Shown here piece by piece: positions 44,296-64,000 of a stretch of 64,000 bases of DNA. Below the pieces are notes generated by a model. It had not been told where the DNA came from. It did not search any database and saw only the letters and a list, made by a program, of their open reading frames with translations. The stretch's first letter is position 1. Each line of letters begins with the position of its first letter. A program made the position numbers and the translations under genes. Origin of the DNA: an uncultured Bryobacterales bacterium (GTDB taxonomy: Bacteria; Acidobacteriota; Terriglobia; Bryobacterales; UBA6623). The stretch spans positions 248,001 to 312,000 of the forward strand of contig CATOTH010000008.1 in NCBI GenBank assembly GCA_951813065.1, in the 5' to 3' direction.

Positions 44296-44328
44296 GAATC
44301 GAGCTCGATCGAGAATCGAGCTCGATTC
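44296..44328. terminator. 14-bp inverted repeat after the receptor gene
   Basis: GAATCGAGCTCGAT (44296-44309) is repeated inverted as ATCGAGCTCGATTC (44315-44328) with a 5-base loop. It starts 14 bp after the receptor stop. There is no T tract, so it may be a terminator stem or a protein-binding palindrome. Confidence 0.5.
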
Positions 44329-44329
44329 A

Positions 44330-45190
44330 ATCTGATTCGCCGGCCAATCGATATCCGTGCCAGGCCTGCCGGCACTCGCGGCCGCGTGCCTGCTGAAGGG
44401 ATTGTCGGTCCGAGAGTGCCGAACCCACCGGCATATCCACGGCCTGTAGAACCTGTACTGGGCGAGGCAAACGGATAGCATGTATCGTCCCCGAAGCACT
44501 TTATCGGCACGGCGTGGAAGGCGGAATGAGTCCGGCAGTTCACGGACAATGCTACTGGGCGCAGAAAGTCGCTAGCGGCCATTCGAAGTGGCGTTGTCCC
44601 GAATTGGTTCAGTGTGGTCCCAGTATGGTCTTGCACTAGCTCAGAGACGCGTTTAACTCATTTGTAACCAATGACATGAATGGATTCTCAAGAGTCCGTA
44701 AGACGTTTGTTCGTGGGTTCGATTCCCTTGCCTCCATAATTCTTATGTAACCAATTGTAGTACTTGTACTTATATAGGAATTCAAGATTCGATTATCGCT
44801 TAAGATACCACCTTGAATATCGAGAAAGCGCCAGCTCTTGCGGGCGAGACCGCGCTGACTTCCTGATTCCGCTCAGCAGATGACGGGCGAGAGCAGCGAC
44901 CGATACATTCTCTCGAGAGCCTGATCCTTCACGCAGAGCGAAGTTTCCATGAGACTGGCCGTGTTGTCAATTGTGGCTGCAGCTCGGTGGATGGAGCAGT
45001 ACCGTCAGTCACGGCAACCCGTCGTCCAGCCACGCCGTTTCTTATCATCTGTGTTGACATCTCCTTGGCGCGGGACATATGACTCACTCCCCGTTCGTTC
45101 GCCACTGCCGTTCGTCAGTGACATGGAAACACGGATTAACCTTTCAGAGAAGCGCGAACCTAGGCCATTCCGTCTGTCCTGGAAACCCTC
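44330..45190. other. Gene-free stretch containing a tRNA-3'-end-like sequence
   Basis: I find no supported gene. The only notable feature is the tRNA-like T-arm and acceptor end at 44710-44736. Base composition from about 44650 to 44830 is more AT-rich than the flanks. Confidence 0.5.
44710..44736 (+). repeat. tRNA-3'-end-like sequence, candidate left attachment site
   Basis: The T-arm-like core TTCGTGGGTTCGATTCCC (44710-44727) is exactly repeated at 58233-58250. It is followed by TTGCCTCCA, which resembles a tRNA acceptor end. No complete tRNA can be folded upstream. Such 3'-end copies typically mark integration sites. Confidence 0.5.
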
Positions 45191-46017: not shown

Positions 46018-48433
46018 CTGCCGTTTACACACAAATCATGGTGATCGCATCTTCTGATACAGTTTGCTGGCTTTATTCAGGCGACGAGCGCGTTCGATGG
46101 CTTGCCTAATTGCCGCCAGGCGTATGTAGCCTTCCCACATGACCTTGTGGCCCGGGTGGGCATAGCGCTTGCGTTTGAAGTTGAGATACCCGCCCAGCAT
46201 CGCCAGTGTCAGCACCGCCCGTCCGAGATTGTCCGGCGGTGCTTGCCGACGATCCTTGGCGAAATCCTCCAACGCCGCGATCTCGATCTCCGAGAAGAAC
46301 GTCTCCGGCGGCAGTTCCGGCGTGTCCCGCCCCATCAGCGTCATCGCCGCCAGACGCCACGCGATCACCGCGTTGATCGTCACCGCCCGCTCGATCCGCT
46401 CCCCCCGCCGATGCCCCAGGTACTCCACCTTGCAGCCCGACTTCAGCACCCGGTGCCAGTCCTCGATCCGCCACCGCAGCCGGTACCACTCCAGCATCCG
46501 CTCCGCGTCCTGCCGCGTCTGTACCGGCAAACTCGTCAGCAGGAACCACTCCAGCCGTGCCACCCCCTCCGGCGCGTTCTCCTCCCGCACGTGCACCACG
46601 TTCAGCGGCACCGCGGCCCCCTGCCGGTCCGGATCCCGCAACTGCACCGCCTGCCATCTCAGATCCACCTCCGCCACGCGTTCCTCGCGCGCCGGCCGGC
46701 CCGGCTGCCCGCGGCTCGACCGCCGCGCGCTCTGCCGCGCCACGTGAATCTCCAAACGCCCCTGCGCGGCCTCCTGCCGCACCGCCTCGAACAGCTTCGG
46801 CACCCCCTTGCCCAACACCCGGTCGTGCTGCGCCCGCACCAGCAGGTCCACCGTCCCCAACCGCCGCTGCTCGGCGAAGATCGCGTACACGTCCCCTTCC
46901 CGGTCCAGCACCGCTACCGGCCGCACCCCTTGTAACTGCTCCGCCAGTTCCGCACACTCCCGCAACCCCCGGATCCAGCGCATCGTCTTGCGCTCCTCCA
47001 GCGGCTTGCCCTGCTCCGCCTGCCCGTCCGGGGCCTCGTACTGGATCTGCGGCACCCCCAACGGGATCCCCTCCCCGTTGACCACCAGCGTCGAGTGCAT
47101 GTGGATCCCCAGCGTCCCCGCCGAGCCCTTGTTCTTGCTGATCAGGCCCAGTCCCACGCAGCCCGGATGCTCCGCGAAATTCAGGTCCGTCCCGTCCTGG
47201 ATGCACAGCACTGCCGACTGGCCCTGCATGCGCTGCAGCGTGCGCTCCCGGTGCGGCGCCAGGATGTGCTCCGGCGTCACCTCCGAATCCGCCGGCTGGT
47301 CGATCATCCGGTAGTAGCCCCGCACTGCCGCCAAGTCCTTCTGCGCCGCTCCGGGAAACGACTTGGTGGGCGCTGCCGCCTGGATCTCCACGCTCTGCAC
47401 CAGCCTCCGAGTCAAGCGTACATCGCCCAGCGGCGCGGTCCCGAACTCGTTGTGCGCCCACTCGCCGGAGGCCAGGCCCGCCCCCAGTGCCAGCGCCGGC
47501 ACGCCCGGCGCTGGCAGGCCCAGTTGCGCGCGCCAGTTGCGCGCCAGCGGATACAGCCAGATGGCCTTCACGTCCACCTGCGTGCCGGCGGCCGCCAAGC
47601 GGCCCCGCCCGGCGGTCACGCCGATGCGCTGCCAGTTGGCGGCCGCCAGCGAGGTGCCCGCTTGGTCTTGAGAGACAAAGGTTTCCACCAGCAGGGGGCG
47701 GTAGCCGTAGCGCCGCAGGCAGTCGTCGGGCAGCCGGCGCAGGGCCAGCGAGAGGGCCTTGGAGGCGAGATTGCGGCAGGCGGCGGAGGGTCGGATCAGG
47801 AAGCGGCTCAGGCCGAGCACGCGATGCAGGTGGCGCGAGCGGGTGGCGGGGTCCCAGCCGATGAAGGCGTCGCGGGCGGCCAGCGTGAGAGCGGCCGCGG
47901 CAAAGCCGAGCGCACCGAGCACGCCATGTTCGCAGACCAGCAGGTAGCGCAACTGGGCCCCGGCGTGGAGGACAGCTCCGCGGGGATGCTCGCGGGCGAT
48001 GAGTTCGTTCCAGACGCGGCGCTGGTGCTCGTCGCGGACCGCGACGAGTTGCAGGTCGCGCACCCGGTCGACCCGGGCGGGCAGGCCGACGGGCGGGGGC
48101 ACGGGACGGTCCAGGCGGCGCGGGCGGCCACGCTGGCGGTTGTGCCGGGGCGCGGGCAAGTCGATCTGGCGGGCGGCTGCGAGAGCGCGCAAGGCCTGCA
48201 TGCAACTGGCGACCTGCGGCTTGCCGTGGGCATCGAGGAATCCGAACCGGGCGCAGACCTGCCGGCCAATTTCGGTGCGGCTGGCGTCGCCCGCGTCGGC
48301 CACGAGTTTGCGGACCTGGATCAGCGCAGGGCCCCGCGCCAATGTGGTCGGGATCCGATGTTGCTCATACATGCTCCAGAAATGGCACAGAGCGATGTCA
48401 AAAGTCAAGTGTCAACTTGTGTGGCATCGGCAG
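46018..48433. mobile_element. IS4/Tn5-type insertion sequence with DruA-fused transposase (2,416 bp)
   Basis: The ends are CTGCCG at the left (46018) and its complement CGGCAG at the right (48428-48433). Beyond these six bases the ends match imperfectly, about 15 of the first 19 positions. An exact 8-bp direct repeat, CCCGCACC, flanks it at 46010-46017 and 48434-48441. IS4 relatives usually give 9-12 bp, so the precise ends could be off by a base. The transposase fills the element. Confidence 0.75.
46036..48372 (-). CDS. Tn5-like transposase with N-terminal DruA-like (DUF4338) domain
   Basis: 778 residues from the ATG at 48372, which has GGAG six bases upstream; a TTG at 48408 is the longer option. 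Residues about 90-300 show the DUF4338/DruA pattern (ELIAREHPRGAV, LRYLLVCEHGVLGALGFAAA, RDAFIGWDPATR, YGYRPLLVETFV, AAANWQRIGVTAGRGRL). The rest is a Tn5-type transposase: EWAHNEFGTAPLGDVRLTRR, CIQDGTDLNF (first Asp), AVLDREGDVYAIFAEQ (second Asp), LEWYRLRWRIEDWHRVLKSG (Glu). All three catalytic acids are present. DruA is the hallmark protein of Druantia defence, but DUF4338 domains are also fused to transposases. Confidence 0.9.
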   Translation of the reverse strand: MYEQHRIPTTLARGPALIQVRKLVADAGDASRTEIGRQVCARFGFLDAHGKPQVASCMQALRALAAARQIDLPAPRHNRQRGRPRRLDRPVPPPVGLPARVDRVRDLQLVAVRDEHQRRVWNELIAREHPRGAVLHAGAQLRYLLVCEHGVLGALGFAAAALTLAARDAFIGWDPATRSRHLHRVLGLSRFLIRPSAACRNLASKALSLALRRLPDDCLRRYGYRPLLVETFVSQDQAGTSLAAANWQRIGVTAGRGRLAAAGTQVDVKAIWLYPLARNWRAQLGLPAPGVPALALGAGLASGEWAHNEFGTAPLGDVRLTRRLVQSVEIQAAAPTKSFPGAAQKDLAAVRGYYRMIDQPADSEVTPEHILAPHRERTLQRMQGQSAVLCIQDGTDLNFAEHPGCVGLGLISKNKGSAGTLGIHMHSTLVVNGEGIPLGVPQIQYEAPDGQAEQGKPLEERKTMRWIRGLRECAELAEQLQGVRPVAVLDREGDVYAIFAEQRRLGTVDLLVRAQHDRVLGKGVPKLFEAVRQEAAQGRLEIHVARQSARRSSRGQPGRPAREERVAEVDLRWQAVQLRDPDRQGAAVPLNVVHVREENAPEGVARLEWFLLTSLPVQTRQDAERMLEWYRLRWRIEDWHRVLKSGCKVEYLGHRRGERIERAVTINAVIAWRLAAMTLMGRDTPELPPETFFSEIEIAALEDFAKDRRQAPPDNLGRAVLTLAMLGGYLNFKRKRYAHPGHKVMWEGYIRLAAIRQAIERARRLNKASKLYQKMRSP

Positions 48434-49543: not shown

Positions 49544-49861
49544 ATGACCAAGCGATACAACAGTGAGGTGCTGGCGGCAGGGCATGAGGCGGCGCTGGGA
49601 CTCGCCGGGGCCGGTTTCATGTCGAAGCGGACCATGCGGGCGTTCGACGAGATGTGCCTCACGCCGGTCAAGGAGATGGCGCCAGAGGATATACGCGCTT
49701 TTCGGCTTCGCGAGAACGCGAGTCAGGCGGTGTTCGCGTGCCATCTCAACGTGACGTCGGGGCTGGTGAGCCAGTGGGAGCGCGGCGAGAAGCGGCCGCG
49801 CGGCGCATCACTGAAGATCCTGACGCTCGTAGCAAAGAACGGCCTGGGCGCAGTAGCGTGA
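49544..49861 (+). CDS. HigA-like helix-turn-helix antitoxin
   Basis: 105 residues. The C-terminal XRE-type helix-turn-helix (about residues 45-100) reads APEDIRAFRLRENASQAVFA and then LNVTSGLVSQWERGEKRPRG. This is the NadS/HigA layout in which an N-terminal segment precedes the helix-turn-helix. It follows the broken HigB by about 70 bp in the usual toxin-first order and is intact, so it may persist as a DNA-binding regulator. Confidence 0.85.
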   Translation: MTKRYNSEVLAAGHEAALGLAGAGFMSKRTMRAFDEMCLTPVKEMAPEDIRAFRLRENASQAVFACHLNVTSGLVSQWERGEKRPRGASLKILTLVAKNGLGAVA

Positions 49862-50136
49862 CAGCGCGCATCATCACTACATCGTGCCGCATCATGTTGG
49901 GACGCCGCAGAGTGTGGGTCCAGCGCGATCTTCCCTCCATCACGGTCACCCAGATGAGCCTCGACCTCGCGGGCAAGCCGAACGTGCGTGTCATCCTTAA
50001 GCGGATCTGCGAGGAGGGCTGCGACGAAGCAGAGAAAGGGAACTAGGTCGCAAAGTGTCGACGTTGGGAGCGAGCAAGATCGGAACAAATATCGGGAACG
50101 GATCGCCGATGATGGGCTTGATGCGGGAGCAAACCC

Positions 50137-51171
50137 ATGTCTCTGAATGAAAACTTACAAAGGGCTAGGCGGGAAAAGAACGACGAGTTCTACACGCAGC
50201 TTTCCGACATCGAGAACGAGCTCCGCCACTACATCGGGCACTTCTCCGGCAAGGTTGTGTATTGCAATTGCGACGACCCCCGCGTCTCCAACTTCTTTCA
50301 TTACTTTTCGTATAACTTCGAGCGCTTGGGCCTGAAAAAGCTCATCACCGCGTGCTACAGGAACCAGCAATTCGACATGTTCAGCCGTCACGATTCGGAG
50401 CGGGCAATATGGCTCGAATACAAGAGAAACGCGAAGGGCAGCAGGGTGCCCGACGTTGGGGATATTGGAATCCGTGAGTTTAAATGGGACGGGGATTTCC
50501 GCAGCGCAGAATGCATCGAGCTTCTGAAGCAGGCGGACATCGTGGTGACCAATCCGCCGTTTTCGCTTTTCCGAGAATACGTCGCCCAACTGGTGCAGTA
50601 CGGCAAGAAGTTCCTGATTATCGGGGGCCAGAACGCAATCACCTATAAGGAGATTTTCCGACTAATCAAAGAAAACCGGGTATGGCTTGGGTATGGCTTC
50701 AGGAATGGAGACGCATATTTCAAGGTGGCAGACGTTGAACGCTATGAACGGAAGTCGTACTTCGACCCAGCAACCGGACTCGTCAAATTCCGAAATGTCT
50801 GCTGGTTCACAAATCTTGACCATGCCAAGCGCCATGAGGAATTGATTCTCTACAAGCGGTACTCGCCCGAGGAATACCCGGCCTACGACAACTACGATGC
50901 GATCAATGTGGACAAGATTGCCGAAATCCCGATGGACTGGGACGGGGCGATGGGGGTACCGATCACATTTCTGGACAAGCACAACCCGGAACAGTTCCAA
51001 GTCTTGGGAATAACAGACAGGGACAACAACTCCGGCCTGAAGACCAGAGAGTATACGTCGGCAGATGTGCCCAACCCAAGCGATCTGAATAGAAGGGGTG
51101 TTATAAGGGTTGGGGGCGAGTATAAGCCCACCTATGTACGCCTTCTGGTTAGAAGAGTGCCGTCGCAATGA
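50137..51171 (+). CDS. EcoRI-type adenine-specific DNA methyltransferase
   Basis: 344 residues. The MT_EcoRI family shows NDEFYTQLSDIENELRHY (15-32), the SAM-side YCNCDDPR (42-49) and catalytic NPPF (139-142, in IVVTNPPFSLFREYV), then YGKKFLIIGGQNA and GYGFRNGD. It methylates the amino group of adenine in a short target. Unlike EcoRI, the partner here is a DUF262-HNH protein, whose start overlaps this stop as ATGA. The methylase should protect host DNA. Motifs are all intact. Confidence 0.92.
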   Translation: MSLNENLQRARREKNDEFYTQLSDIENELRHYIGHFSGKVVYCNCDDPRVSNFFHYFSYNFERLGLKKLITACYRNQQFDMFSRHDSERAIWLEYKRNAKGSRVPDVGDIGIREFKWDGDFRSAECIELLKQADIVVTNPPFSLFREYVAQLVQYGKKFLIIGGQNAITYKEIFRLIKENRVWLGYGFRNGDAYFKVADVERYERKSYFDPATGLVKFRNVCWFTNLDHAKRHEELILYKRYSPEEYPAYDNYDAINVDKIAEIPMDWDGAMGVPITFLDKHNPEQFQVLGITDRDNNSGLKTREYTSADVPNPSDLNRRGVIRVGGEYKPTYVRLLVRRVPSQ

Positions 51172-52262
51172 ACATTGACCTGAAGAAAATCACAGTCCGA
51201 GACCTTGTGGACGAGTACCATGACGACGGCGAAGGCGGCGTGCGTGGCTACGGCGGAAAGCTCGACATCCGCCCACCGTTTCAGCGCGAGTTCGTCTATA
51301 GAGACAAGCAGCGCGATGCAGTGATCGAGACGATCAACAAGGGCTTTCCGCTCAATGTGATGTATTGGGCCGTGCGCCAGGACGGAACGTATGAGGTCAT
51401 CGATGGCCAGCAGCGCACGATCTCAGCCGCGCAGTACGTGGAAGGCGACTATTCCCTTGACGGGCGGTATTTCCACAACCTGCAAGACGACGAGCAGGAG
51501 AGGATTCTCAATTACCCGTTGCAAGTTTATGTCTGTGAGGGGAGCGCCAGCGAGAAGCTGGATTGGTTCAGGATCATCAATATCGCGGGCGAAAGACTGA
51601 CCCGCCAGGAGCTGCGGAACGCTGTCTATGCTGGCCCGTGGGTGTCCGACGCAAAGCGGTATTTCAGCCGGAAGGGGGCTGCGTGCCCGGCTTACGCAAT
51701 CGGCCGTCGGTATTTGAATGGGAGGACGGAACGCCAAGAGTACCTCGAAACCGCAATCCAATGGATCAAGGACGAAGGCAAAACGGTCGAGGAGTACATG
51801 GCCACGCATCAGCACGACAAGACCGCAACGGCATTGTGGAGTCACTTCCAGTCTGTAATCAACCGGGTGGAAGCGGTTTTTCCCAAGTACCGCAAGCAAA
51901 TGAAAGGAGTGGATTGGGGCGGGCTTTACGGGCAACTCAAGGACGAGAGCCTAGATCCCGAAGGACTTGAAGCCGACGCTGTCCGCCTGATGATCGACGA
52001 CGATGTGACGAAGAAGGCGGGCATCTACCCATATCTCCTTACTGGCGAGGAAAAGCATCTCAATATCCGGGCCTTCTCCGATGCCATGAAGCAGAAGGCG
52101 TTCGAGATTCATAACGGTAATTGCAGGTCATGCGCGAAGGCGTTTGAGATGTCGGAAATGGAGGCCGACCACATCACCCCGTGGTCCGAGGGTGGCAAGA
52201 CAATCGAACAGAACTGTCAAATGCTGTGTAAGCATTGCAATCGCAGGAAATCCAACAAGTGA
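51168..52262 (+). CDS. DUF262-HNH nuclease, likely restriction partner
   Basis: 364 residues, overlapping the methyltransferase by four bases. The N-terminal DUF262 (ParB-fold) domain has PFQREFVY (37-44) and the DGQQR nucleotide-binding motif (79-83), followed by a helical middle. The C-terminal HNH domain (about 319-364) holds CRSCAKAFEMSEMEADHITP and EQNCQMLCKHCNRRKSN, with two Cys pairs and the catalytic His. DUF262-HNH proteins include GmrSD-, SspE- and BrxU-like nucleases that cut modified or unmodified DNA. Pairing with an EcoRI-type methylase suggests cleavage of unmethylated DNA (inference). Confidence 0.88.
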   Translation: MNIDLKKITVRDLVDEYHDDGEGGVRGYGGKLDIRPPFQREFVYRDKQRDAVIETINKGFPLNVMYWAVRQDGTYEVIDGQQRTISAAQYVEGDYSLDGRYFHNLQDDEQERILNYPLQVYVCEGSASEKLDWFRIINIAGERLTRQELRNAVYAGPWVSDAKRYFSRKGAACPAYAIGRRYLNGRTERQEYLETAIQWIKDEGKTVEEYMATHQHDKTATALWSHFQSVINRVEAVFPKYRKQMKGVDWGGLYGQLKDESLDPEGLEADAVRLMIDDDVTKKAGIYPYLLTGEEKHLNIRAFSDAMKQKAFEIHNGNCRSCAKAFEMSEMEADHITPWSEGGKTIEQNCQMLCKHCNRRKSNK

Positions 52263-53227: not shown

Positions 53228-56200
53228 CTATTCCCTTGAGTGTATGTGGGGGGCTAGGCCTTGAAGACTAACCTCCCGGACGATCCCCCCAATCTTTGGA
53301 ACCAACACTTCCATCTCAACGGCCCCCTCAAGAACCTGCCCAAGTAGCGCCAACAGCAATTCGCCCAAGAGCAAGTGGACATCGGACAGCGCGTGTTCAG
53401 CGGGAAGCCACGGTACCGGAAAGTCCTCTGCGCATGCGACCAAGATGGAGGCTTGATTGCTGTCTGGCCCACCTGCAGACTCAGCGACCAAGAACCCCTT
53501 CGGCAGATCGCCGGGGTTGGGGAGTTTCACTGCTACTTGAGCCTCGAGTTGTTTCCGATTCGAAATGGTAATGACGGCTTCTCCCCGTGGTATGTGCTCA
53601 ACGTCCACCAACCGTTGCCGGATGACGCGGTCTAGACTCGATAGCAATAGCGCCACAACCGTAGTCGTGATGGCTGTTCTCGGGTTGTCGTCCAACTGTA
53701 CAAGCGAGACTACGACACCGTCAGCAATCCCCAGTCGAATCGTCCAGTGGCCACTCCCGTCAAGCTGAGGTTTGAAATAGATCCGGGCTGACGAGGCTGA
53801 AATCCGTTCTGCTACATCAGTGACATCGCCTAGGGTCAGCTCTTTGCTAGATTGTGCTAACAGGATTGCTGCTGCTGCCGCTAGTCGCCCGGTCGTTATC
53901 GACTCAGACTCCGGAGGGACTACGGCGTTCGTCAATTGGAGAACAATCCGGCGTTCGACCACCGGAGGAACGTCTGCGAGCAGATCCGCCACCGAAAGCG
54001 CGACTGTCGGCACGATCCGCTCGATCCGTTTGATGGTGTCTGCCATTCTCGCCACAGCGCGATAAAGCGTACTGAGAGGGCTGATATCCTCGCCGGTCCG
54101 CGTCGAGTTTGGCAAGAACACTCCACGCAACAGCTGGGTTTTGAGGTCAGGATTCTTCAACGATGTACACAAATGCAATGCGTCTGAAGCCAGAGAGACA
54201 AAGTACGATCCGCCGGGTCGAATCGCCGATATTGCTGTTACAGCGGCTGTATAAGCGCTGATGGCTTCGGCGTGATCTCGTTGACCGGTCAGCGCAACAG
54301 CCCGCTCCTCCTCGGCTCGTGCGATCAAGATGTGATCGCCAACCAGGCGTGCAAGTGTGACGGCATGCTGTGCATGATGGAGTGCGTCACCATACTCTTC
54401 ACGCTGATTGTGAACTGAGGCGATTAGCTCGTTCGCGGCGGACTCGGCATCGCGAAGACCGCCCGCCACGGCCGCGCTGTCGGACGCGTGGTATTCGATA
54501 AGGGCCTTGTCCAGCTCGCCTTTATCCCGTAAGACGTTGCCAAGTGTGACCCTATTGATCGCAATGACATGAAGATCGTCTAGTTGCTCTCCGATTTGGA
54601 TCGCTTCGTGAGCGAACTCTGCTGCACGGACTGTATCACCTGATTCACGATAGTGCCTAGTGAGGTAGTTGCAAAGGGCGGCGCGTTCTCTCGGGTGCTC
54701 TTCAGGGGCCAACTCCTCTTGGAGTTCTTGAGCAAGAGCCGCAGCCTCCTCTTCTAGACCTCCAATACCACTCAGCGCAGCCAGGAGGTTCAGGCTGGCA
54801 ACCCTCTTCCCGACTTGGTCTCCGAGATCACTGAACACTCTCAAGGCTTCACGCGACACGCTGGCAGCAGACCGAAAGTCTCTTCCAGAGATATACTCCG
54901 CTGCCAATAGTGTCCCTGAACGTGCTGCATTAAAGATGTCCCCATTCTCAGCAAACATGTTGCGTAGCGAAGCAAGTTCGGCAATGCGTTCGGTACGTGG
55001 TCTGTCACCAATGTCGAGCACAGCCTCCATCTCCCTCAGCCAGACGAAACACGCCGGCTCGTTCAGCCGGTTAGCAGTTTCCCGGGCCTGCTCAAGTGCT
55101 TGAACTACACCATCACTGGCACCTGTTTGCTTGAGGGCATATGCCAGTGCCAACAGTGCTTGCAACCGCTCTTCGTGGCCCCCCCTATCCAGAGCGAGTT
55201 CTGCCTGCCGACGGAACACGGGAATAGCGAGCGCCCCGCCTCCCATTAACACTGCTTGCCCAGCAGACCGCTCTAGTATGCGGTCCGCATGGCGGCGTTC
55301 GTTAGCCTCAGAATAGACATGAAACGCTGCTAAGTAGCGTTCAGAATCTTCGAAGAACTGTCCAAGGCGGCTTGCAAAGAACGCCAAGCGGTCTGGAGAT
55401 TGGTTTAACTGATCCAGAATCGTTGCTCGAAGATGCTCATGCACAAGCATTATCTGGCCCCTCACTTGCCGTAACAGCCCACTGGCAATCGACACTTGCT
55501 CGGCAACAGACTCTGGTCCTTCCTCTCCATCCAAAAGCGTGTGCAGGTTTCCTAGCGAGATTGGCCGAGGTGATAGCGCCAGATAGAACGTGATTTCCTT
55601 GGCCCGAGGCGGCAAGGATTGGATGGCGCGGATTTCAAGCTCGCGAAGGCTGAGTTCGGCGGATGCCCCTTCACCGAGTGCAAAAAAACGCAAATAGAGC
55701 GGACTCCCGCCGCTTCGAGCTATGAGATCGGCAAGCTCGCCAGGACCGGGACGCCTCCCTCTAAGAGTGGTGACCCATCTGACGGTTTCTTCGCTCGTCA
55801 AGGGTGGCAATTCGAAACGCTGGTTCGAAGGAACGCTGAGACGTGGTCCTGAGGTCACAACCAGGTGGCGACCCCGTCCGGGCGCTTCCCAGAAAACTTG
55901 CGGGTCAGACGCGCCGTCGACCACGAGTACTACCTCTGGAATTTCGTCCCAATTCCTTAGAATCTCACTGATGGCGCCCTGCTCTGTCGTCAGAGTAACG
56001 GCTGGCCGTCCTAGCCGTGCTCTGATCGCGTTGGCGGCTCGAGCCAAGAGATCCAAGCGGCTCAGCCCCTGACCATCAACAAAGATCCATCCATTCTCCA
56101 CGGACAGTTGGGCGAGCAATATCGTTTTGCCGCCACCAATCGGTGCGGTGACAACGATACGGCCACATTCATTCAAGGTGTCGATCAATGCACTCTCAAC

Positions 56201-56770
56201 ATGCGGCCGACGGAGACGGTGGACTGGAGTGGGAACAAGAGATTCGAGCACCTCCTCGGGTTTCGGTGCGTCAAAGGAGAACAAAGCTTGATCGGAAAAG
56301 CGATTGCTGATCACTGCGGTCAGGTCGTTTCGTACTCGATCCCTGAGCTGCTCTGAGTCTGAATAAAACGCGACAGTTATGCCGGAGTTCATGGCTTTAT
56401 CGACTAGGTCTTGAAGCCTCGTATCCCTACAAGAAGGAGATTGGTATACGTAGACTAGACGGTCAACACCTCCAGTTTCCGCTATCTGAAACTCGTCTTC
56501 GACTCCCGAGATTTTCATTCCTGGCGCGATCCATCCGTAAGACTCTTTGTAGATCCCGACGAAAATCTGTGACTCTTCAAGTCGCGACTTATAGAGGTCG
56601 CGTGGAGGATGTGGCCGTGCGCCGATATCCTCGAACAGGATAGGGACGTGGTTGATTGATAGGACCGCGTCTCGGGCTGCTGCACGCTCGGCTGCGCATT
56701 CCGTAATGGTCGAACTGACGAATACGCGAAGGCGATCAACTGTCAACGATGTCACGATGAAGCGCTCCAT
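53228..56770 (-). CDS. DUF4062-STAND NTPase-TPR protein, probable defence protein
   Basis: 1,180 residues. Residues about 12-100 are DUF4062 (RLRVFVSSTITECAAERAAA, then KSRLEESQIFVGIYKESYGW), a TIR-like Rossmann domain. A STAND-type NTPase follows: Walker A APIGGGKT (209-216), Walker B VVLVVDG (280-286), HLVVTSGPR (302-310) and the SGGSPLY (353-359) motif that matches the STAND GxPL box. From about 500 to 860 are TPR-like helical repeats (ALLALAYALKQTGASDGVVQ, NRVTLGNVLRDKGELDKALI). The last ~300 residues are unassigned. STAND proteins of this layout sense a ligand and trigger an effector. It overlaps the upstream gene by 19 bp. Confidence 0.8.
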   Translation of the reverse strand: MERFIVTSLTVDRLRVFVSSTITECAAERAAARDAVLSINHVPILFEDIGARPHPPRDLYKSRLEESQIFVGIYKESYGWIAPGMKISGVEDEFQIAETGGVDRLVYVYQSPSCRDTRLQDLVDKAMNSGITVAFYSDSEQLRDRVRNDLTAVISNRFSDQALFSFDAPKPEEVLESLVPTPVHRLRRPHVESALIDTLNECGRIVVTAPIGGGKTILLAQLSVENGWIFVDGQGLSRLDLLARAANAIRARLGRPAVTLTTEQGAISEILRNWDEIPEVVLVVDGASDPQVFWEAPGRGRHLVVTSGPRLSVPSNQRFELPPLTSEETVRWVTTLRGRRPGPGELADLIARSGGSPLYLRFFALGEGASAELSLRELEIRAIQSLPPRAKEITFYLALSPRPISLGNLHTLLDGEEGPESVAEQVSIASGLLRQVRGQIMLVHEHLRATILDQLNQSPDRLAFFASRLGQFFEDSERYLAAFHVYSEANERRHADRILERSAGQAVLMGGGALAIPVFRRQAELALDRGGHEERLQALLALAYALKQTGASDGVVQALEQARETANRLNEPACFVWLREMEAVLDIGDRPRTERIAELASLRNMFAENGDIFNAARSGTLLAAEYISGRDFRSAASVSREALRVFSDLGDQVGKRVASLNLLAALSGIGGLEEEAAALAQELQEELAPEEHPRERAALCNYLTRHYRESGDTVRAAEFAHEAIQIGEQLDDLHVIAINRVTLGNVLRDKGELDKALIEYHASDSAAVAGGLRDAESAANELIASVHNQREEYGDALHHAQHAVTLARLVGDHILIARAEEERAVALTGQRDHAEAISAYTAAVTAISAIRPGGSYFVSLASDALHLCTSLKNPDLKTQLLRGVFLPNSTRTGEDISPLSTLYRAVARMADTIKRIERIVPTVALSVADLLADVPPVVERRIVLQLTNAVVPPESESITTGRLAAAAAILLAQSSKELTLGDVTDVAERISASSARIYFKPQLDGSGHWTIRLGIADGVVVSLVQLDDNPRTAITTTVVALLLSSLDRVIRQRLVDVEHIPRGEAVITISNRKQLEAQVAVKLPNPGDLPKGFLVAESAGGPDSNQASILVACAEDFPVPWLPAEHALSDVHLLLGELLLALLGQVLEGAVEMEVLVPKIGGIVREVSLQGLAPHIHSRE

Positions 56771-57915
56771 TCCGCTGGAGGATCGACCGCCGTGTCAGCC
56801 TCAAGAGCAGACAAAGATCTTAGAGCTGCTTGGAGACCTGCGAGATTCGCGCGTCTCTTCTTTGCGAGATGTCGAAGCAACACGTTGCCGTCTGCGACAA
56901 CCTGCGTGCTGACATCTTCGGTTGAATACGCTGGGAGTTCTCCACCGTCCGCAAGTTCGTATCGTGTCCGTATTGCTTGGATGATGCCGTTTTCTGCCTC
57001 GCGAGCACTCAGCCCGGCAAAGTGAGCACCTCGACCCATCTCAGCACTGAGCACGAGATTGCAAAGAGCTTGCTCAATTTGCCAAGGCCTGACCCCGTAT
57101 TCGGCCAAGCCTCGCATCAGGCGTTGCACGGACGACTCTCGACGCATCCTCTCGAGCGTCACAGGAAAGTGTTGCGCGAGTGCCCTAGTGCGCTGTTTGG
57201 CAATTCCGTCTGGCTCAAGTTTCGGGGGTCCTGTGGGCGATTCTGGCTCGTTCCCGGATTCGGCGCGTAGTGCAAGCCACGCCATTGAATTGGGCGTCGC
57301 CTCATCCTCGTCAACGAAAGTGACCTCGAATTTCTGCAAGGGCTTTAGACTGGGTATCGGGCGAACGTCTGGCGACGATCGAGGGGTCAATACGCTCCTG
57401 GGGCCCACATACGTCACGCCATCTAGCAAGAAGGGAGCGATGGGCGCAGAACAGTACTTTCGGAAAGCCTGTAGAAGCGGGTTAATCGAATCAATCGGCT
57501 TGATCCAGGTAGGTCCCAACACGAACGCTCTATGGGCGCGGTCAAATCCAAGACAGCGCCGCTGGAGACGCGAGTACTCAGGTGAGATCGCGAGCAGATA
57601 CCCTCCGTTCTTCCGGAACACGAAACTCATAGCAACAGAGTCGGGGTCGGTCATCTGACTCCAAGCGCTGAACTCTTCGAAAGCCTTGACGAGTTCGTTC
57701 CCGCGCTGGGCAACAAGGGAGATTACCGGTACTTCCTTGTCGAGTGTTCCCGACCAAGCGCTACCGTATGCGATCGCGTCGACCACAGCTGCATTTAGGT
57801 GCCCAATGAAATCCACTGAAGCAATCGCCGCCACGTATGGCAGGCATCCATAGTCGAATCCTCTCGGCCTCAACTTGAAATCCGGGCCACGAGAAGTTCG
57901 TCTCCGCCGCTTCAT
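56752..57915 (-). CDS. Unknown protein in operon with the STAND gene
   Basis: 387 residues from the ATG at 57915 (GGGACTC upstream); the frame continues to 57975 with ATGs at 57927 and 57975. I recognise no domain. An N-terminal part (FDYGCLPYVAAIASVDFIGH through AVVDAIAYGSAW) could be an alpha/beta domain. The middle is Pro/Glu-rich (PESPTGPPKLEPDG), and the C-terminus is helical (RRESSVQRLMRGLAEYGVRP). The overlap with the STAND gene shows translation coupling. It could be a sensor, effector or regulator; its function cannot be told from sequence. Confidence 0.7.
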   Translation of the reverse strand: MKRRRRTSRGPDFKLRPRGFDYGCLPYVAAIASVDFIGHLNAAVVDAIAYGSAWSGTLDKEVPVISLVAQRGNELVKAFEEFSAWSQMTDPDSVAMSFVFRKNGGYLLAISPEYSRLQRRCLGFDRAHRAFVLGPTWIKPIDSINPLLQAFRKYCSAPIAPFLLDGVTYVGPRSVLTPRSSPDVRPIPSLKPLQKFEVTFVDEDEATPNSMAWLALRAESGNEPESPTGPPKLEPDGIAKQRTRALAQHFPVTLERMRRESSVQRLMRGLAEYGVRPWQIEQALCNLVLSAEMGRGAHFAGLSAREAENGIIQAIRTRYELADGGELPAYSTEDVSTQVVADGNVLLRHLAKKRRANLAGLQAALRSLSALEADTAVDPPAEWSASS

Positions 57916-58338
57916 GAGTCCCACCATAGGACACTTGCCGGAAACACCCTCAGTTGCTCTGCTCGGTGGGCTCAAGAAAGACTCTAGTCACCAGATCCCA
58001 AACACCTAGTCCGTTGACCTCAGGTCGTCTCAAGATAGAGCTCTTCTCTTTCGGTCAAGTAGGAAGGACTTCGGGACTTCGGAATCGTCGAAGCTTGTAT
58101 TCGCTTAGCATAGGTCAAGCACGGAGTGGCAGCATGGGTCCCTGACTGGATCCCGCATTGGAAGAAGATGCCATTAACGATCGGGGAATCAGTAGATTAC
58201 GATGATTTGCCAGATGATCTGCAAAACTCTTATTCGTGGGTTCGATTCCCACGAGAGCCTCCATCGCTAAGTCGACTGTGCCCAATGCCGAGAGGTTCCT
58301 GCCACCTCCATATTGTCAATACTCCTTATGATTCCCAT
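57916..58338. other. Gap with tRNA-like remnant
   Basis: No gene is evident. The right tRNA-like sequence lies here (58214-58263). Confidence 0.5.
58214..58263 (+). repeat. tRNA-Cys-like 3' half, candidate right attachment site
   Basis: The loop CTGCAAA holds GCA, the tRNA-Cys anticodon, and is followed by the T arm GTGGGTTCGATTCCCAC and the end GAGAGCCTCCA. The T arm pairs perfectly. The anticodon stem is mismatched and the matching 5' half (GGCTCTC) is not found upstream, so this is a 3' half. The core at 58233-58250 equals that at 44710-44727. Confidence 0.55.
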
Positions 58339-61581: not shown

Positions 61582-62060
61582 CGCGGATTCCGCTCCGCAG
61601 CCCCGGAGTCAGGTCCGTCACGGTATGGCGGACGGCTCCCTGCGCCTCGTGGCGGCTGCCGGTGCTCCCAACTCGGCGCCGCCCACCCCCCCAGCGCTCT
61701 CAGCAGCGCAACAAGACCCGCTTCTCCGCGGCGATCCGCCACAGTTTCCGTATCCCAACGGCAGATTTTCCACCATATCCCCATCCCACCAATTACGAAT
61801 CAGCGGTGCGGAGGTACGCCGAGCCTGGGTGTGGACGTGGCACTCGCCGCAAACTCGGCTGGTAGCGCCCACGGCCCTTGGCGCATGGCCAATAGCCCCG
61901 CTCTCCACCGCGCCCTCCCGAACGCCTACTTCGCCTCGTTGGGCCTGCCACGGCTCCAGGTTCGGGGATAGCTTAACCGGTCGTACCGCCGTATACGGAC
62001 CCGTATGTACGGTGGTGTGGGAGGGGTGGAGCCGCGAGGCTCCCCCTATCCCGACTGCTG
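61582..62060. other. Non-coding stretch with intron-like hairpins
   Basis: No gene is supported. It ends with the two hairpins listed next. Confidence 0.4.
61984..62052 (+). ncRNA. Possible group II intron 3' end (domain V/VI-like hairpins)
   Basis: The first hairpin pairs ACCGCCGTATACG with CGTATGTACGGTGGT (with bulges) around GACC. A second is GGAGCCGCGAGGCTCC followed by CCCTATCCC. They lie directly upstream of the istB fragment and resemble the last two domains of a bacterial group II intron. No reverse transcriptase gene is nearby, so this would be a relic. The identification rests on my memory of such sequences. Confidence 0.3.
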
Positions 62061-62859: not shown

Positions 62860-64000
62860 CTACAAACTTGGGCTACTCTCTTCGATACTAGCCCCTACCG
62901 ACAGTAGGTCGTCACGAACCAAGAAGCGCTTTCGCTCCCCTTCTGATGGTAGGAAACAAGCCTCAATGTCGCTTGGGATCGGAATGTAGACTTGGTTTGC
63001 CAAAAAGATCGTGCAACTCGCGAATCGCCCGCCGCCCGGTTCTGTCGAGATCAACTTCCTCGACTCAAGGTCGTAATACAGCCCATATTCCTCAGACCGA
63101 TGGGCAAAAATGAACAAGACCCGTTGCCCACCCCAAACGATCGACGTCGTGTGAGGCTGAAGGAAGAATTCGGCCCTGTCCTCCCTCGCCTTCCTTCCTA
63201 GCGCAAGAAAGCACCTATACCCCGCCAATCCGGGCTCACCTACCGGAATCGTTAACAGCTTCGCAGTGCACGATATGTCAGACCGAACGATCGCCGATAG
63301 TGCTTCGAATCCGAACTCCTCTTCAGTTCCATTCTCGGCGAGAATGGCCTGATTCGCTGCCACATCTGGAAGTACGTCCTCCATGTTCGCTGCGGAGCTT
63401 GAGTCCAGCACTTGTACATCTCGACGAGAAACGGCCATCGTCTTCTCGATGGCCTCGGCGACACCCATGCGGTCGTTCCTAACGTCCTCCCAGAAAGCTA
63501 GTTCAGGGAATTCCTGAATGTCGTCTCCCTCGTACTCGAACGCCTCTCGTCGCCTGCGGATCATCTGCAAGAACGCTTCCGTTCCTTGGGTCTGGCTGTT
63601 CGGCACATACCGTGAGATTCGCGGAAACACAATGTTCCTTACGAAGTCGCCGACCATCGGGCCAAACGCGGAATACTCGTTCTCGTAAAGGCCAACAATC
63701 ACCTCGATCGCACTCAAGCTCCGCTCAACGGTGATCACCACGTCACCATCGGATCTTTCTGCAAACACCGGGACCCTGTGAGTGACTCGACCGAATCGCA
63801 ATTCAGTCGGCAACAGATAATCGTTTCGAAGGATGGCACTGATTCTGTACAAGATCGCGTGCTCGGCCGCCGTGTAGCCTGAACTGGGCAGAGTTTCTGT
63901 CACCTGCGGCTCATCCGACACCGGCGTAACGTGGTCCTTACAGAATCTCTCGATATACTCTCGCTCGCATCGACGCCGCGGATCGTAACGCGCGAATAGT
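62860..64000 (-). CDS. Unknown large protein, 5' end beyond window
   Basis: A GTG at 63921 gives 353 residues, but the same frame stays open to the window edge (FARYDPRRRCEREYIERFCK precedes it), so the true start is probably outside. The sequence is mixed alpha/beta: EHAILYRISAILRNDYLLP, FAERSDGDVVITVERSLSA, then an acidic stretch (REAFEYEGDDIQEFPELAFW). The C-terminal half is beta-rich (FLANQVYIPIPSDIEACFLP). I recognise no family. Confidence 0.6.
   Translation of the reverse strand, partial: LFARYDPRRRCEREYIERFCKDHVTPVSDEPQVTETLPSSGYTAAEHAILYRISAILRNDYLLPTELRFGRVTHRVPVFAERSDGDVVITVERSLSAIEVIVGLYENEYSAFGPMVGDFVRNIVFPRISRYVPNSQTQGTEAFLQMIRRRREAFEYEGDDIQEFPELAFWEDVRNDRMGVAEAIEKTMAVSRRDVQVLDSSSAANMEDVLPDVAANQAILAENGTEEEFGFEALSAIVRSDISCTAKLLTIPVGEPGLAGYRCFLALGRKAREDRAEFFLQPHTTSIVWGGQRVLFIFAHRSEEYGLYYDLESRKLISTEPGGGRFASCTIFLANQVYIPIPSDIEACFLPSEGERKRFLVRDDLLSVGASIEESSPSL

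What the first reader, a model, noticed from the sequence alone, without database searches (positions are those of the whole stretch)
53228..57915. Two-gene operon: unknown protein plus DUF4062-STAND-TPR protein in a defence-like island
The 1,180-residue protein joins a DUF4062 Rossmann domain to a STAND NTPase (Walker A 209-216, Walker B 280-286, SGGSPLY 353-359) and TPR repeats, with an unassigned ~300-residue C-terminus. STAND proteins with sensor repeats include anti-phage Avs-type systems. The partner, translationally coupled by a 19-bp overlap, has no recognisable domain. The pair sits next to a restriction-like module between tRNA-like repeats.
Basis: partly seen in the sequence, partly recalled or inferred. 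Interest (0 to 1): 0.78.

Follow-up and report, generated by a model that had tools for sequence, protein, structure and literature searches.

The report
NLR-like NADase gene with orphan partner
A soil-type bacterium carries a two-gene, probably anti-phage alarm: a large NLR-like protein with an intact predicted NAD-destroying domain, and a tightly coupled partner protein that matches no known family; in both genomes where the region can be read through, the two genes sit side by side.

Summary
Two minus-strand ORFs overlap by 19 bp: a 387-residue orphan (56752-57915) and an 1180-residue DUF4062-STAND-TPR protein (53228-56770). Both are real genes: a genome of another family in the same order carries full-length homologues of both, adjacent and closely coupled (33-35% and 28-31% identity). 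DUF4062 was reported in a May 2026 preprint to be a TIR-like NADase that kills phage-infected cells (Swarozyc). The window protein keeps the catalytic glutamate (E93, equal to KpSwz E97), a column invariant in all natural DUF4062 domains aligned here. Between the two homologues the DUF4062 domain is best conserved (52%) and the C-terminal region worst (21%), as expected for a fixed effector and a changing sensor. The partner matches nothing in Pfam, NCBIfam, PADLOC, PHROGs or PDB sequences. It was found in only three genomes; it adjoins the STAND gene in both where that can be read, and lies near none of 20 other DUF4062 genes. The island also holds a type II restriction system between two tRNA-Cys-derived fragments. 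Most likely an NLR-like abortive-infection NADase with an obligate partner of unknown fold: a new variant of a known kind. Phage defence itself is untested.

The parts
56752..57915 (-). Partner gene P0002, 387 aa, orphan family; ATG start matches the start and length of the G209 homologue (also 387 aa)
   Evidence: no family hits
53228..56770 (-). DUF4062-STAND-TPR-CTD protein P0001, 1180 aa
56752..56770 (-). 19-bp overlap of partner stop and STAND start (translational coupling inferred)
   Evidence: in G209 a GTG start lies 1 nt after the partner's stop (TGAAGTG)
56480..56728 (-). DUF4062 TIR-like domain, residues 15-97
   Evidence: Pfam PF13271 E=6e-20; PDB KpSwz 10wc E=0.0028
56492..56494 (-). 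Predicted catalytic Glu93 (aligned with KpSwz E97)
56123..56146 (-). Walker A, residues 209-216 APIGGGKT
   Evidence: canonical GDAGSGKT in the G209 homologue
55913..55933 (-). Walker B core, residues 280-286 (VVLVVDG, followed by ASD)
   Evidence: IDGLD in the G209 homologue
55694..55714 (-). STAND GxP-type motif SGGSPLY, residues 353-359
   Evidence: SNGNPLL in the G209 homologue
54191..54970 (-). TPR region, about residues 601-860
   Evidence: Pfam TPR_12, TPR_MalT; all-helical in a low-confidence model
53231..54163 (-). C-terminal region, residues 870-1180, fastest-diverging, no family
   Evidence: 21% identity to G209 against 52% in DUF4062; no match in ORFs of 20 other DUF4062 loci
58216..58263 (+). 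tRNA-Cys 3' fragment, 42 of 48 bases identical to the genome's tRNA-Cys, about 300 bp upstream of the partner gene
44691..44736 (+). Second, more decayed tRNA-Cys 3' fragment; with the first it brackets about 13.5 kb
50137..52262 (+). Type II R-M genes: EcoRI-type methylase (50137-51171) and GmrSD_N-HNH REase (51168-52262), preceded by a small HTH gene (49544-49861)

Best explanation
The pair is an NLR-like abortive-infection system. The 1180-residue protein is a switch. Its N-terminal TIR-like DUF4062 domain is an NAD+ hydrolase held inactive, the STAND NTPase is the ATP-driven oligomerisation module, and the TPR plus C-terminal region, acting with the partner, reads an infection signal, most likely a phage protein. 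Signal binding releases the NTPase, protomers oligomerise, DUF4062 domains are brought together, NAD+ is depleted and the infected cell stops before phage release. The co-translated partner is a dedicated subunit of this switch, and I commit to sensor or adaptor (about 55%) over inhibitor (about 30%) or accessory enzyme (about 15%). Shown here: the gene pair and its conservation, domain order, intact catalytic and P-loop residues, the conservation gradient, and the island context. Reported by others for relatives: NADase activity and phage defence of DUF4062, and C-terminal sensing by STAND NADases. Inferred: oligomerisation, NAD+ depletion by this protein, phage as trigger, and the partner's role.
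For: DUF4062 domain. DUF4062 is a TIR-like NADase with anti-phage action that needs E97 of KpSwz and is triggered by a phage portal (PMC13174449). P0001 aligns with the KpSwz PDB chain, and P0001 E93 falls on the position that reads A in that construct (reported as E97A) and E in a wild-type Vibrio relative. This column is Glu in all 22 natural sequences covering it, while neighbouring E91 varies. Identity to the homologue along the chain is 52, 34, 22, 32 and 21% from effector to C-terminus. The full pair is conserved in G209. The partner and the C-terminal region are absent near 20 other DUF4062 genes of the order. The neighbours are a type II R-M system and tRNA-Cys-derived fragments. Avs5 (SIR2-STAND with TPR or Sel1 repeats) works in this way, through NAD+ depletion after sensing a phage protein (PMC12931631).
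Against: I found no phage or biochemical data for bacterial DUF4062-STAND proteins; the five tested Swarozyc proteins share similar C-terminal auxiliary domains that are not STAND modules in KpSwz, and of four human DUF4062-NACHT proteins only TEP1 was an active NADase. The G209 pair is not in an obvious defence island. The partner's fold is unknown: the AlphaFold model has mean pLDDT 36 and that of P0001 39. Only two complete pairs are known. A neutral relaxation of the C-terminus would also give the identity gradient.
Confidence: 0.68

Rival explanations
1. The partner is an inhibitor (antitoxin-like guard) that keeps the NADase silent; phage interference with the partner releases it.
For: The partner is encoded first and tightly coupled, as is common for antitoxins; it is conserved with the toxic-looking protein in 2 of 2 readable loci.
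Against: STAND proteins are normally self-inhibited by their own NTPase and repeats (general knowledge; PMC12931631 proposes this for Avs5), so a separate inhibitor is not required. The partner is large for an antitoxin.
Confidence: 0.2
2. The protein is a signalling or transcription-regulation STAND (MalT/AfsR-like) and DUF4062 is only an interaction domain; no immune role.
For: The TPR region resembles MalT-like and AfsR TPRs (E=4.2e-5 and 2.9e-6). Human NWD1, NWD2 and NPHP3 carry DUF4062-NACHT without detectable NADase activity. The G209 locus is not defence-like.
Against: No DNA-binding domain was found. The catalytic Glu is conserved. Distribution is extremely sparse (2 of 257 genomes of the order, 0 of 10 congeners), unlike a housekeeping regulator.
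Confidence: 0.15
3. The STAND protein works alone and the partner is an unrelated gene that happens to be coupled.
For: Only two complete loci are known. KpSwz acts as a single protein.
Against: The pair is kept in the same order and tight spacing at about 30-35% identity, in different surroundings in two families of the order. The partner was found nowhere without it where the neighbourhood is readable.
Confidence: 0.1

Closest known systems
Swarozyc (KpSwz; DUF4062 TIR-like NADase anti-phage system, PMC13174449; PDB 10wc, 11cq, 11cv)
   Same: DUF4062 effector domain with the catalytic Glu at the same aligned position (E93 = E97); found in defence islands.
   Different: KpSwz is one protein of about 330 aa with a helical stalk and a portal-binding HTH/winged auxiliary domain. 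Here the effector is joined to a STAND NTPase, TPRs and a new C-terminal region, and has a partner protein.
Avs5 (SIR2-STAND with TPR/Sel1-type C-terminal repeats, PMC12931631)
   Same: N-terminal NADase-type effector, central STAND NTPase, C-terminal repeat sensor region.
   Different: Effector is SIR2, not DUF4062; NTPase is nSTAND3, not detected here; no dedicated partner protein is described in the passages I read.
Eukaryotic TEP1 / NWD1 / NPHP3 (DUF4062-NACHT proteins, PMC13174449)
   Same: DUF4062 next to a STAND-class NTPase; TEP1 is an active NADase.
   Different: WD40 repeats in several of them rather than TPR plus a new C-terminal region; no partner of this family; TEP1 acts inside the vault.

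Membership tests
DUF4062 (PF13271) TIR-like domain family | Match above the curated cut-off | tested here: met
   71.7 bits against cut-off 24.7; G209 homologue 69.6 bits
DUF4062 (PF13271) TIR-like domain family | Catalytic glutamate (KpSwz E97) | tested here: met
   E93; column is Glu in 22 of 22 natural sequences that cover it, Ala only in the PDB construct
DUF4062 (PF13271) TIR-like domain family | NAD+ hydrolysis | not testable with these tools
   Needs an enzyme assay
Swarozyc | Short protein with stalk and portal-binding auxiliary domain after DUF4062 | tested here: not met
   PDB KpSwz match covers only residues 13-114; NTPase and TPR follow instead
STAND NTPase | P-loop, Walker B, GxP-type motif in order after the effector | tested here: met
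   Residues 209-216, 280-286, 353-359, matched in the homologue by GDAGSGKT, IDGLD and SNGNPLL; only weak Pfam AAA_22 support, E=0.0044, below its cut-off
Avs (AVAST) systems | Match to a catalogued Avs profile | tested here: not met
   Only a generic TPR model in PADLOC-DB for P0001; homologue also a weak PDC-S68 match, E=4.9e-4
Avs (AVAST) systems | Activation by a conserved phage protein | not testable with these tools
   Needs phage challenge and co-expression
Known partner or accessory protein families | Any profile match of the 387-aa partner | tested here: not met
   No hit for P0002 in Pfam, NCBIfam, PADLOC or PHROGs, nor significant PDB sequence match

The most novel reading that the evidence does not exclude
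The orphan protein founds a new class of obligate NLR partner: a separately encoded co-sensor (or guard) that a DUF4062-STAND NADase needs to recognise phage, so that recognition is divided between two co-translated proteins, with a C-terminal region that occurs only with this partner.
Probability: 0.4. Interest if true: 0.72.

Novelty: new variant of a known kind. Interest (0 to 1): 0.52.

Why it matters
DUF4062 has only just been reported as an NADase, and bacterial DUF4062-STAND proteins are, as far as I could find, untested. They have the same order of parts as TEP1 of the human vault (DUF4062, then a STAND-class NTPase, then repeats), so a small, testable bacterial operon of this architecture could show how a STAND module switches a DUF4062 NADase. 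The orphan partner is a concrete new protein family with a two-gene test.

Tried and rejected
Structure prediction: rejected as evidence, mean pLDDT 36 for the partner and 39 for the STAND protein, so no fold search was run. Search for the partner in viral contigs, phages and plasmids: nothing; STAND protein in viral contigs: nothing. Partner related to the unnamed ORF at 62860-63921: rejected; that ORF is the C-terminal part of a 781-aa HSP90-like ATPase. E91 as catalytic residue: rejected, the column varies. Clean empty site in congeners: not found; homology ends just behind the TonB-type gene at 44310 in seven relatives, and none of the fetched downstream stretches matches the rest of contig 8 as fetched, so the island's right border is undetermined. 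STAND homologue in the Polyangiaceae genome: none found, but the contig ends inside the partner gene, so this is uninformative.

Full report
Observation. The two minus-strand ORFs exist as described: 56752-57915 (387 aa, P0002) and 53228-56770 (1180 aa, P0001), overlapping by 19 bp. P0001 has DUF4062 at residues 15-97 (E=6e-20), TPR repeats, and weak AAA_22 support over the P-loop. The P-loop APIGGGKT (209-216), VVLVVDG (280-286) and SGGSPLY (353-359) are in place. The G209 homologue has the more canonical GDAGSGKT and IDGLD at the same points. P0002 matches no family.

They are real, paired genes. In 257 genomes of the order, P0002 has one relative outside the window's genome (G209, another family; E=3e-47) and P0001 one full-length relative, and these are neighbours in the same order. 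The G209 partner is also 387 aa. There the STAND frame can start with GTG one base after the partner's stop, so close coupling is kept although the exact junction differs. A third partner relative lies in a Polyangiaceae MAG, but its contig ends inside the gene, so the neighbour cannot be read. The partner was not found otherwise in 396 genomes of the phylum, 399 of the class and 379 of the other phylum (overlapping samples), nor in plasmids, phages or viral contigs. It was also not near 20 other DUF4062 genes of the order. So the pair is rare, scattered and, where readable, always together (2 of 2). That is a small number.

What the effector is. A May 2026 preprint (PMC13174449) reports that DUF4062 is a TIR-like NADase. 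A Klebsiella protein, KpSwz ('Swarozyc'), depletes NAD+ on sensing a phage portal and needs E97; human TEP1 is an active NADase too. KpSwz is in the PDB, and P0001 residues 13-114 align with it. P0001 E93 aligns with an alanine in that PDB sequence. The paper describes the solved construct as E97A, and a wild-type Vibrio relative has TEKEF at that place, so the alanine is taken to be the mutated catalytic residue. In an alignment of 24 DUF4062 domains this column is Glu in all 22 natural sequences that cover it, while the neighbouring E91 column varies. The active site of P0001 is therefore predicted intact.

How it is built. Identity between P0001 and its homologue is 52% in DUF4062, 34% in the NTPase region, 22% in the stretch 421-600, 32% in the TPRs and 21% in the last 310 residues. 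The C-terminal region has no relative in the ORFs around 20 other DUF4062 genes. This is what an effector of fixed chemistry and a changing recognition part would show; relaxed constraint would show it too. The partner has conserved blocks (RPI, FPVTLER, WQIEQAxCNL) and a divergent C-terminal 90 residues.

Mechanism. I propose autoinhibited STAND, signal recognition by TPR/C-terminal region and partner, ATP-driven assembly, clustering of DUF4062, NAD+ loss and abortive infection. Precedents: KpSwz for the effector, Avs5 (SIR2-STAND with TPR/Sel1 repeats sensing a phage protein and depleting NAD+, PMC12931631) for the architecture. Only anatomy and conservation are shown here; the activity steps are inferred. 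The partner's role is open: co-sensor, inhibitor, or accessory enzyme.

Context. Two stretches derive from the 3' half of tRNA-Cys: 58216-58263 (42 of 48 identical) and 44691-44736 (local scores 38 and 26.5; next unrelated stretch 16). They bracket a type II R-M system (EcoRI-type methylase, GmrSD_N-HNH nuclease), an IS and the pair. Beyond the window lie a two-gene HSP90-like ATPase plus calcineurin-like phosphoesterase operon and a tyrosine integrase split by a frameshift. Synteny with seven congeners stops at 44310. All this fits a mobile, defence-carrying region at tRNA-Cys-derived sites, but its right border and an empty site were not found. The G209 pair is not in such a region.

Membership and novelty. 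It is a DUF4062 protein and a STAND protein by tested features. It is not Swarozyc as described (no short stalk/auxiliary architecture) and has no catalogued Avs profile, though it probably works like an Avs-type NADase. The partner family is, within everything searched, undescribed. I file it as a new variant of a known kind. Limits: two complete pairs only, no usable structure model, one preprint for the effector's chemistry.

Noticed in passing
window 46018-48433 (ORF 46036-48408, -): A multicopy insertion sequence whose 790-aa transposase joins a DruA domain (PF14236, E=3.7e-29) to Tn5/IS4-type transposase domains. Five near-identical full copies in the genome share ends CTGCCG...CGGCAG and are flanked by what read as 8-bp target duplications, so this 'Druantia' domain is here part of a recently active IS.
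   Followed up: partly
window 62860-64000 and beyond (L005:10861-14684, -): Two-gene operon with 4-bp overlap: 781-aa HSP90-like ATPase (HATPase_c_3) and 493-aa calcineurin-like phosphoesterase with weak TPRs (weak PDC-S60 match, E=2e-5); a possible further defence pair.
   Followed up: partly
L005:15368-16590 (contig 8, about 3.4 kb right of the window): Tyrosine integrase (Arm-DNA-bind_3, Phage_int_M, Phage_integrase) split over two frames, apparently inactivated.
   Followed up: no
L041 and L040 (contig 11, 55846 and 49080): A tRNA-Cys copy identical to the contig-7 copy except for its altered 5' end, and another 3' fragment 6.8 kb away: tRNA-Cys seems to be a repeated integration target in this genome.
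   Followed up: no
window 49544-52262 (+): Ordinary-looking type II R-M system with a small HTH gene that weakly resembles R-M control proteins, an EcoRI-type methylase and an unusual GmrSD_N-HNH restriction enzyme.
   Followed up: partly
window 61984-62055 (+): Group II intron domain (Rfam RF00029, 42.8 bits, just above gathering score) in a region with IS-like debris.
   Followed up: no
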